A stretch of DNA of 64,000 nucleotides from Bolinopsis microptera (Eukaryota > Ctenophora > Tentaculata > Lobata > Bolinopsidae). The stretch lies in assembly GCF_026151205.1 (NCBI RefSeq), contig NC_087081.1, positions 3,227,246 to 3,291,245 of the forward strand. The letters run 5' to 3'. Both the position numbers and the translations under genes were made by a program. A model generated the notes under the pieces. That model saw only the letters and a list, made by a program, of their open reading frames with translations. It did not search any database and had not been told where the DNA came from. Every line of letters begins with the position of its first letter. Within the stretch, counting starts at the first letter, position 1. Shown piece by piece: positions 15,740 to 18,700 of this stretch.

Positions 15740-18700
15740 GCAAGTGATGATATTATGACAGGCAAGAAGTTATTATAACATTATTATAACACTGTTATAG
15801 CTATGAAAGTTTGAGTTTATCATGTTAATTTATCTGGAAAAGTGCGTTATGAAAATCTCAAACCAAGTCAGTTTGTATTTTAAATATATGAGCGTAAAAT
15901 AGTCATTAAAAGGTATAAAAACCTGAACAATGCATTATTCCAATCTTCATTGATGGTATTATATAATTCTTGTTTTTACGTTTAATTTTAACCCCTCACT
16001 ATACAGGTTACTGTGTATCTGCTGCCAGAGATGGTATTAATTCTTGTTTTTAAGTTTAAGTTTAACCCCTCACTATACAGGTTACTGTGGTATTAATTCC
16101 TGTTTTTAAGTTTAAGTTTAACCCCTCACTATAAAGGTTACTGTGTATCCGCTGCCAGAGATGGTATTAATTCCTGTTTTTAAGTTTAATTTTAACCCCT
16201 CACTATACAGGTGACTGTGTATCCGCTGCCAGAGATGGTATTAATTCCTGTTTTTAAGTTTAATTTTAACCCCTCACTATGCAGGTTACTGTGTATCCGC
16301 TGCCAGAGATGGTATTAATTCCTGTTTTTAAGTTTAATTTTAACCCCTCACTATGCAGGTTACTGTGTATCCGCTGCCAGAGATGGTATTAATTCCTGTT
16401 TTTAAGTTTAATTTTAACCCCTCACTATACAGGTTACTGTGTATCCGCTGCCAGAGATGGTATTAATTCCTGTTTTTAAGTTTAAGTTTAACCCCTCACT
16501 ATACAGGTTACTGTGGTATTAATTCCTGTTTTTAAGTTTAATTTTAACCCCTCACTATACAGGTTACTGTGTATCCGCTGCCAGAGATGGTATTAATTCC
16601 TGTTTTTAAGTTTAAGTTTAACCCCTCACTATACAGTTTACTGTGTATCCGCTGCCAGAGATGGTATTAATTCCTGTTTTTAAGTTTAAGTTTAACCCCT
16701 CACTATACAGGTTACTGTGGTATTAATTCCCGTTTTTAAGTTTAAATTTAACCCCTCACTATACAGGTGACTGTGTATCCGCTGCCAGAGATGGTATTAA
16801 TTCCTGTTTTTAAGTTTAAGTTTAATCCCTCACTATACAGGTTACTGTGGTAAGAATTCCTGTTTTTAAGTTTAAGTTTAACCCCTCACTATATGAGTAT
16901 ACAGGTTACTGTGTACCCGCTGCCCGAGAACTGTGCAAACATAGACCGGAACAATATAACTTGGGTCAAACTTGATGGCTCTCTACCGATAAGCAGGTTA
17001 ACAAATTCAATTGTGAAGTAATAAAATATTAATTAAGTGTTATTTACTAGAAATATTAAGTTGTGGGGTATTCGAATTACAGCTGCAGACTGCAATGAAA
17101 TCCAGCACATATTTGGAATGATTAAAGGAGGGGAAATTCAAATTTATGACACAGCCACACAGGGTGTTTCACAAAAAGTGTCTAGTTTTTGATTTATTTT
17201 AAAATTTGCTACAAAAGATTAAAGAAGTAACTATTTATATTTTGGTTATAAACGGAATGAAATAAAACAAAACAATAATATGTGACTCAATAATTAATTA
17301 TCTGCTCAACCCATCGTCCTTTATGGAGAGGATATTATTTTGATACCGGGAATTAAACATGAAATGACCAAGGAGAACACTAACGAACTCGTCTTGGTAA
17401 TACAGCAATTCATTTAAAAAAGACAAGTAAAAAAGAATGGAGGCTGTGCAAAGGTAAGGCGGGAGGGTTATTTAAAACAGTTACATCACCGTACGTTAAC
17501 AAAGTGGTATTTCACAGAATAGAAATGAGCTACGATCAGGAGGACACTTTAGCTACACTTAAAATGAGAGCCCTTGAAGAATCTGACTTGGGAGTTTACA
17601 GGTATGACATAATTAATTGTATTGGTATATGAAACTATAAAAATGCCGGTTTAAAAAAACCCGAATAGGAACTATTCGGGTAAAGTTGAAGATTGTTTTG
17701 GGTTGAGTTATTTGACATTTGTTATTGTTTTATTGTCCCATGGTCTCACAAATATGGCAATGAGTATCCCAGCTGCATATAATGCAGTGTACTAATAGCA
17801 GCAGATATGAGATAACAACACGATTGCTTACTGCTTTACTGATAGGCGTGCAAGAAATTCCTGAGCTGAGTAGGGCCGGTAGCTCAATTGGTAGAGCACC
17901 AGGCATGTTACTCGGAGGTTGGCGGATCATACCCGCCCTGGCCCTATGCCGGCCCATGATTTTCCGAATAACTTACCAGTGGAAATCTAGTCGATTCAAA
18001 TATCTGCTTGCTTGGTACTCATGGTCGATACAATCACAGCCCAACTAAATTCTTGATCAGACTGATTCACCTACATGTGCATACGTCATCTGGGAGCCGT
18101 CAGTTGAGCTTGCTCTCTGACTCGTGGGTTGAAAACATCGTGTACAGTACTTCGTGAGTAGTACAGTACTTCACAACGATAATCCGCCTTACGAATTACT
18201 GCACGCCTTGGTTAGAACAATGGGACAGATTTACCGGCTTGTTTAATAAATAATCATCAAACATTCATCAAATCAGAAGTTTTAAAAGTTAAACTTGTTA
18301 TACAGGTGCGAGGTAAACTACAAAGGAACCCTTTACTCGAGTGAAAACATCGCCCTGGATCTCCGAAGTAAGTTTTGAATAAACTTGGCTTGTGTACATA
18401 ATATTAGGCCTTTTTTAAAAGGCTATTGACGTTTAAAAAAAGGACGTTCATGCTTTCATTTATTATTTCCTGTTATTTGCACTTCGTTACTAGTGAGCAT
18501 TATAAACTTTTCCAATATTTATTTTTAATTTCGAAGCATGAAGCGCATGAAGAATATTACTTCTATTCCTAATTATTATAATCTACATGTTATATCCAGC
18601 CGATGCTGAAGTAAGAGCTCAACCTTATAACCTGTACAGCTTTATTAAAAAAACGTAGTTTACAAATCAACATACAGAGATATAGATTACTGACGTTAAA

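What the first reader, a model, noticed from the sequence alone, without database searches (positions are those of the whole stretch)
15964..16904. A splice acceptor and exon start amplified about 13-fold in front of the real exon
Each tandem unit carries the intron end CACTATACAG and, in the long form, 24 bases of exon 2 coding VTVYPLPE. If the ATG|GTATTA in each unit served as a donor, each long copy would be a 27-nt cassette and each short copy 9 nt, all in frame (phase 0). So the array could add short repeats to the first Ig domain, act as acceptor decoys, or be inert. I know of no described case quite like this.
Basis: partly seen in the sequence, partly recalled or inferred. Interest (0 to 1): 0.8.

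Follow-up and report, generated by a model that had tools for sequence, protein, structure and literature searches.

The report
Splice-junction minisatellite in comb-jelly immunoglobulin gene
A short stretch covering the end of an intron and the start of the next exon has been copied 13 times in front of an immunoglobulin-type exon, probably in a comb jelly; this is a known kind of tandem repeat, described in amphioxus under the name "mirage", and it is most likely removed with its intron when the RNA is spliced.

Summary
The array is real: 13 tandem units at 15954-16849 (9 long, 4 short), then the authentic exon start at 16905. Each unit repeats the intron end plus 27 or 9 nt of exon. I found the upstream exon (15657-15739, GC donor, phase 0) and the next one (17518-17601); joined, they make one Ig domain that a paralogue on C7 (and more weakly one on C11) encodes in a single frame.

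"No described case" is wrong: repeats of intron/exon boundaries are known in amphioxus as "mirages", reported not to disturb splicing. Evidence here favours the same. The 47-nt spacers are far below the shortest of 58 modelled introns (112 nt), 12 of 13 cassette donors are weak, and cassettes vary as much as spacers. Against it: the authentic acceptor scores below 12 of 13 array copies, and the last cassette has a strong donor, so inclusion of single cassettes stays open.

The assembly matches Bolinopsis microptera in size, largest chromosome and N50. Other junction-spanning repeats exist in this genome, but tested exon edges show no enrichment (1 of 277 against 4.8 expected). Published Iso-Seq would decide.

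The parts
15657..15739 (+). Exon A (83 nt), first third of the Ig domain (IDFGCEVYFIPVTTNLVAFYEKTASFQ); acceptor AG ends at 15656
   Evidence: open frame; paralogue on C7 aligns across the A/B junction; acceptor 6.7, 12th percentile. No cDNA.
15740..15745 (+). Donor of exon A, CAG|GCAAGT, a GC donor, phase 0
   Evidence: sequence; score 5.0, 4th percentile of 56; inferred, no cDNA
15954..16849 (+). Tandem array of 13 units (74/78 or 56 nt), each intron end + 27 or 9 nt of exon start
   Evidence: one place found in the genome
16841..16849 (+). Last short cassette GTTACTGTG, the only one of 13 followed by a strong donor (GTG|GTAAGA at 16850, 79th percentile); the intron it would make to 16904 is 55 nt
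16885..16904 (+). Authentic acceptor, with 8 nt (TGAGTATA) that array copies lack; score -1.5, below all 56 reference acceptors and below 12 of 13 array copies (unit 3 scores -1.7)
16905..16996 (+). Exon B (VTVYPLPENCANIDRNNITWVKLDGSLPIS), 92 nt; donor CAG|GTTAAC scores 3.2, below all 56
17518..17601 (+). Exon C (84 nt; IEMSYDQEDTLATLKMRALEESDLGVY between split codons), acceptor score 3.3 (below all 56), donor CAG|GTATGA 7.4 (43rd percentile)
   Evidence: in frame after exon B; paralogue alignment
49607..50330 (+). Second array, 55 bp x 13, ending 24 nt before the acceptor of an Ig exon (about 50355-50461), perhaps of the same gene; no exon sequence in its unit

Best explanation
A 'mirage'-type minisatellite: a segment running from inside the intron across the acceptor into exon B was tandemly duplicated, one copy lost 18 nt to make the short form, and blocks of units then spread by slippage or unequal exchange. 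The array lies inside the exon A/exon B intron. Most mature RNAs most likely join exon A (GC donor 15740) to exon B (acceptor 16904), removing the array as intron. Shown: anatomy, frame, domain homology, relationships of the units. Inferred: the order of events and the splice choice, since no RNA was available.
For: Units 5=6 and 7=9 are identical over 74 nt, as expected of tandem-repeat turnover. Variable columns: 6 of 47 in the twelve 47-nt spacers, 3 of 27 in the nine long cassettes; of the 3 cassette changes 2 alter the amino acid, while the authentic exon differs from the cassette consensus by 2 changes, both synonymous, in the shared 24 nt. The shortest of 58 modelled introns is 112 nt against 47-nt spacers. 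Twelve of 13 cassette donors score 3.4, 2nd percentile. A paralogue on C7 covers query residues 4-86 in one frame (E 3.7e-4) and one on C11 residues 12-86 (E 0.028), supporting the array-free join. Pfam I-set aligns to residues 16-87 of the joined domain, but only to the part after an inserted VTV or VTVYPLPEM. In L041 four equally strong donors repeat every 41 nt and in L047 an exon end repeats every 53 nt, neither a multiple of 3, which suggests that duplicated sites can sit unused. Amphioxus mirages are reported not to disturb splicing.
Against: The acceptor at 16904 scores -1.5, below all 56 reference acceptors and below 12 of 13 array copies (3.9-4.6). The last unit has a strong donor (9.8, 79th percentile). 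Exon B's own donor (3.2) is slightly weaker than the cassette donors (3.4). These are compatible with array sites being used. Two other junction repeats have AG spacings that are multiples of 3 (L011, 57 nt; L047 9523-9668, 60 nt). The loss of Pfam score on insertion is small (17.2 to 16.3 and 16.5 bits), and all three are below the curated cut-off. The C11 paralogue was not listed when I repeated tblastn locally. No RNA evidence.
Confidence: 0.72

Rival explanations
1. In-frame microexon ladder: some transcripts include one or a few cassettes (9 or 27 nt), giving Ig isoforms with VTV or VTVYPLPEM inserted beside strand B.
For: Every cassette is open and a multiple of 3; 177 paths that respect a 112-nt minimum intron all keep frame. 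Twelve of 13 array acceptors outscore the authentic one and the last cassette has a strong donor.
Against: Weak donors in 12 of 13; full serial inclusion needs 47-nt introns; the last cassette's intron would be 55 nt. Insertion cuts the Pfam alignment to the part after it, with a small loss of score. No extra constraint on cassettes.
Confidence: 0.16
2. Acceptor decoys: the array competes for the spliceosome and lowers or regulates correct joining of exon B.
For: 13 acceptor-like sites, 12 scoring above the authentic one. A second array lies in front of another Ig exon, though its 12 scored AGs reach only -2.2 to 2.3 against 12.0 for the acceptor there.
Against: Array acceptors are weak by local standards (2nd percentile or below); amphioxus mirages are reported not to disturb splicing.
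Confidence: 0.07
3. Exons A-C are a decaying domain, skipped or lost, and the array is a by-product of relaxed constraint.
For: Donor of B, acceptors of B and C, and the GC donor of A score at or below the 4th percentile of local sites.
Against: All three exons are open, in frame and homologous to a paralogue; the acceptor of A (12th percentile) and donor of C (43rd) are within the normal range.
Confidence: 0.05

Closest known systems
Mirage minisatellites of amphioxus (Adh3, globins BflGb6 and BflGb9, troponin C; similar repeats in PGBD5)
   Same: Tandem repeats spanning an intron/exon boundary, AG/GT signals in many units, acceptor and donor sides both seen, end units excluded from homogenisation (PMC3087553, passages; PMC3902484, passage).
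   Different: Different phylum (probable ctenophore); shorter units and more copies than BflGb6 (13 of 56-78 nt against 6 and 3 of 150-160 bp); every cassette combination keeps frame here. Haplotype variation and splicing could not be tested here.
Intron gain by tandem duplication (Rogers model; ATP2A1; potato RdRp)
   Same: The potato duplication also crosses an intron end and the next exon start (PMC4974935, abstract and passages).
   Different: No new intron is shown here. The A/B intron is absent from the C7 and C11 paralogues, but gain and loss cannot be told apart.
Human internal tandem repeats at exon-intron boundaries
   Same: Minisatellites that can shift exon/intron structure (PMC2812944, passages).
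   Different: Those are studied in segmental duplications with transcript support; none was available here.

Membership tests
mirage minisatellite | tandem unit spans an intron/exon boundary | tested here: met
   13 units carry intron end plus exon-B start; the authentic boundary at 16904/16905 is inferred from frame and paralogue
mirage minisatellite | units carry AG/GT splice signals | tested here: met
   13 of 13 AG and 13 of 13 GT present, mostly weak
mirage minisatellite | inner units homogenised, end units divergent | tested here: met
   units 5=6 and 7=9 identical; unit 1 (4 nt longer, ACG, CTG) and unit 14 (GTAAGA, 8 extra nt, TAC, CCC) carry private changes; read from the sequences, no formal test, and units 1 and 14 were left out of the distance tables for length
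mirage minisatellite | length variation between haplotypes or individuals | not testable with these tools
   one copy found in the held assembly
mirage minisatellite | normal splicing not disturbed | not testable with these tools
   no RNA data held
intron gain by tandem duplication | a new intron arose from the duplication | tested here: inconclusive
   A/B intron absent in two paralogues matched in one frame; direction of change unknown

The most novel reading that the evidence does not exclude
The array is a length-variable, frame-safe cassette ladder: weak sites let single 9- or 27-nt cassettes into the Ig domain of a surface receptor, so copy number differing between individuals (or cells) would diversify the domain next to strand B.
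Probability: 0.08. Interest if true: 0.78.

Novelty: new member of a known kind. Interest (0 to 1): 0.4.

Why it matters
If the species match is right, this is a mirage array in an early-branching animal. My searches (ctenophore + intron + minisatellite; mirage terms; related terms) showed no ctenophore case in the held open-licence library, which lacks most subscription papers. If splice-junction minisatellites occur in both ctenophores and cephalochordates, they would be a general source of alternative splice sites and perhaps of new introns, and existing Bolinopsis Iso-Seq data could test whether they are silent.

Tried and rejected
Serial use of all cassettes: judged unlikely on intron length and donor strength.

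Enrichment of arrays at exon edges: not supported. Of 277 Ig/fn3 exon edges, 1 lay within 10 nt of an array (L024), against a mean of 4.8 in 2000 sets of shifted positions (share of sets reaching 1 or more: 0.995). Edges and the 41 arrays were not de-duplicated between overlapping loci; this window was left out. The junction repeats of L011, L041 and L047 were not among the edge hits, I infer because their exons were not in the tested set, so they are anecdotal. The three stretches L043-L045 had no array of period 14 or more and score 70 or more.

Array as a dispersed repeat: one place found for the array and one for 15640-15990; that search skips very common words.

Taxon checks: COX1 (PF00115) gave no match. 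zf-C4 (PF00105) gave none, but no control rang, so it shows nothing. PF00104 did not complete. The k-mer genome size in PMC10232365 is about 254 Mbp and the scaffold count in PMC11797021 is 346, against 264.65 Mb and 232 here.

Weak points of the splice model: the Ig profile that gave its exon hits held some wrongly oriented sequences, put right only. Of 62 exon pairs 58 were kept by score; I dropped 2 more with poor donors by hand before the percentiles, which makes the reference donors look stronger. The reference sites were also the training sites. Introns under 35 nt were excluded by construction. One printed row (D2a 28979) was misplaced and is not used. The first D and last R of the 87-residue query fall on split codons.

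I lowered the best explanation from 0.74 to 0.72 and raised the microexon rival from 0.14 to 0.16 and the novel case from 0.07 to 0.08 for that and for the weak C11 paralogue.

Full report
Where the window comes from. The window is G000:C10:3227246-3291245 of a 264.65-Mb, 232-contig assembly. Contig C1 is 26.206 Mb and C11 is 20.825 Mb. The Bolinopsis microptera assembly is given as 265 Mb, 13 chromosomes, largest 26.2 Mb, N50 20.8 Mb (PMC11797021, table passage), with 13 scaffolds holding 97.23% of bases (PMC10232365, passage). The scaffold count differs (346 in the table), and the k-mer genome size is about 254 Mbp. I take the species as very probable, not proven.

The array. It runs from 15954 to 16849 in 13 units: nine long (74 nt, the first 78) and four of 56 nt, then a last spacer and the authentic exon start at 16905. 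Each unit reads GTATTA...CAG or AAG (47 nt, 51 in unit 1) followed by a cassette of 27 nt (VTVYPLPEM in 7 of 9) or 9 nt (VTV). The short form lacks 18 nt of the long one. The authentic acceptor carries 8 extra nt. One place was found in the genome.

The gene. Exon A (15657-15739) ends at a GC donor in phase 0, exon B is 16905-16996 and exon C 17518-17601; the joined frame is open. A search with the joined 87 residues found this locus in three pieces and two paralogues without stops: C7:14692282 (residues 4-86, 28% identity, E 3.7e-4) and C11:14809570 (12-86, 29%, E 0.028). A local tblastn aligned the C7 one across both junctions, its only gap inside exon B; it did not list the C11 one. The joined domain reaches Pfam I-set at E 0.0053 (17.2 bits, cut-off 23.7), aligned over residues 16-87; with VTV or VTVYPLPEM inserted the alignment covers only the part after the insertion (16.3 and 16.5 bits). 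Separately, the exon-B piece gave no family and the exon-C piece V-set at E 0.18. I read further Ig exons along the window and a possible transmembrane exon and last exon in the next 10 kb; that they form one gene is inference.

Splice sites. A position weight matrix was trained on 58 introns inferred between Ig exons in six stretches of the same genome; 56 were used for percentiles. Intron lengths were 112-767 nt. Cassette donors score 3.4 (2nd percentile) in 12 of 13; the last, GTAAGA, scores 9.8 (79th). Array acceptors score 3.9-4.6 (2nd percentile) in 12 of 13 and -1.7 in unit 3; the authentic acceptor scores -1.5, below all 56. Exon A's GC donor scores 5.0, exon B's donor 3.2, exon C's acceptor 3.3. 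So the neighbourhood has weak sites, and the array's are not worse than the authentic ones. This is the main result against a simple inert reading. Serial splicing of each 47-nt spacer is unlikely; single cassettes are possible: 177 paths keep frame at a 112-nt minimum intron.

Constraint. Six of 47 spacer columns and 3 of 27 cassette columns vary; two of the three cassette changes alter the amino acid. The authentic exon differs from the cassette consensus by two synonymous changes in the shared 24 nt. Numbers are small, but show no sign that cassettes are preserved.

Other arrays. Loci fetched because they hold or adjoin Ig exons contained further repeats at or next to likely junctions: L011 330-455 (acceptor plus exon start, twice, AG spacing 57 nt), L041 3186-3347 (exon end plus donor, four times, 41 nt), L024 2089-2167 (starting 2 nt after a donor), and in L047, next to the window, 4660-4771 (probable exon end, 53 nt) and 9523-9668 (acceptor plus 6 nt, AG spacing 60 nt). 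In L047 the acceptor next to the exon is the best of its three (6.8 against 0.8 and -3.0), the reverse of the window. The four donors of L041 are equally strong though 41 nt would shift frame, which suggests that duplicated sites can sit unused; L011 and L047 9523 are multiples of 3 and do not bear on this. At 277 exon edges, chosen without regard to arrays, 1 was hit against 4.8 expected: no enrichment, if anything fewer.

What is known. [quoted passage not shown] two BflGb6 haplotypes have 6 and 3 units, RT-PCR suggests normal splicing, and the authors propose a route to new introns (PMC3087553, passages). Adh and troponin C mirages are said not to give aberrant mRNAs, and PGBD5 has similar repeats (PMC3902484, passage). 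The original Adh paper is not held. The feature here fits this kind on the points that could be tested; haplotype variation and splicing could not be tested.

Verdict. A new, long member of a known kind, in a probable ctenophore. Most likely removed with its intron; in-frame inclusion of single cassettes remains open and is directly testable with existing Iso-Seq.

Noticed in passing
window 49607-50330: A second array (55 bp x 13) ends 24 nt before the acceptor of another Ig exon; its unit holds an acceptor-like TTTATACTCAG, weak by the local model, but no exon sequence.
   Followed up: partly
L047 4660-4771 and 9523-9668: Tandem duplications at a probable transmembrane-exon end (53 nt) and at a probable last-exon acceptor (60 nt between AGs), perhaps the two ends of one intron, just downstream of the window.
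   Followed up: partly
L011 330-455; L041 3186-3347; L024 2089-2167: Further tandem repeats at or next to likely splice junctions in other Ig genes; in L011 the stretch between acceptor and donor-like GT is again 27 nt.
   Followed up: partly
window 31541-32752 and 34508-35603: Two nearly identical reading frames in tandem; the first has a weak 7tm_1 match (E 2.9e-5, below cut-off); the second is split between two frames.
   Followed up: no
window 7347-8471, minus strand: An open frame of 374 aa that looks like a C-type lectin (recalled, not searched).
   Followed up: no
window 17872-17946: A tRNA-Thr-like sequence, by my gene reading inside an intron, possibly SINE-derived.
   Followed up: no
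L043-L045: Regular series of Ig exons with introns mostly of 112-770 nt, with no tandem array at the threshold.
   Followed up: partly
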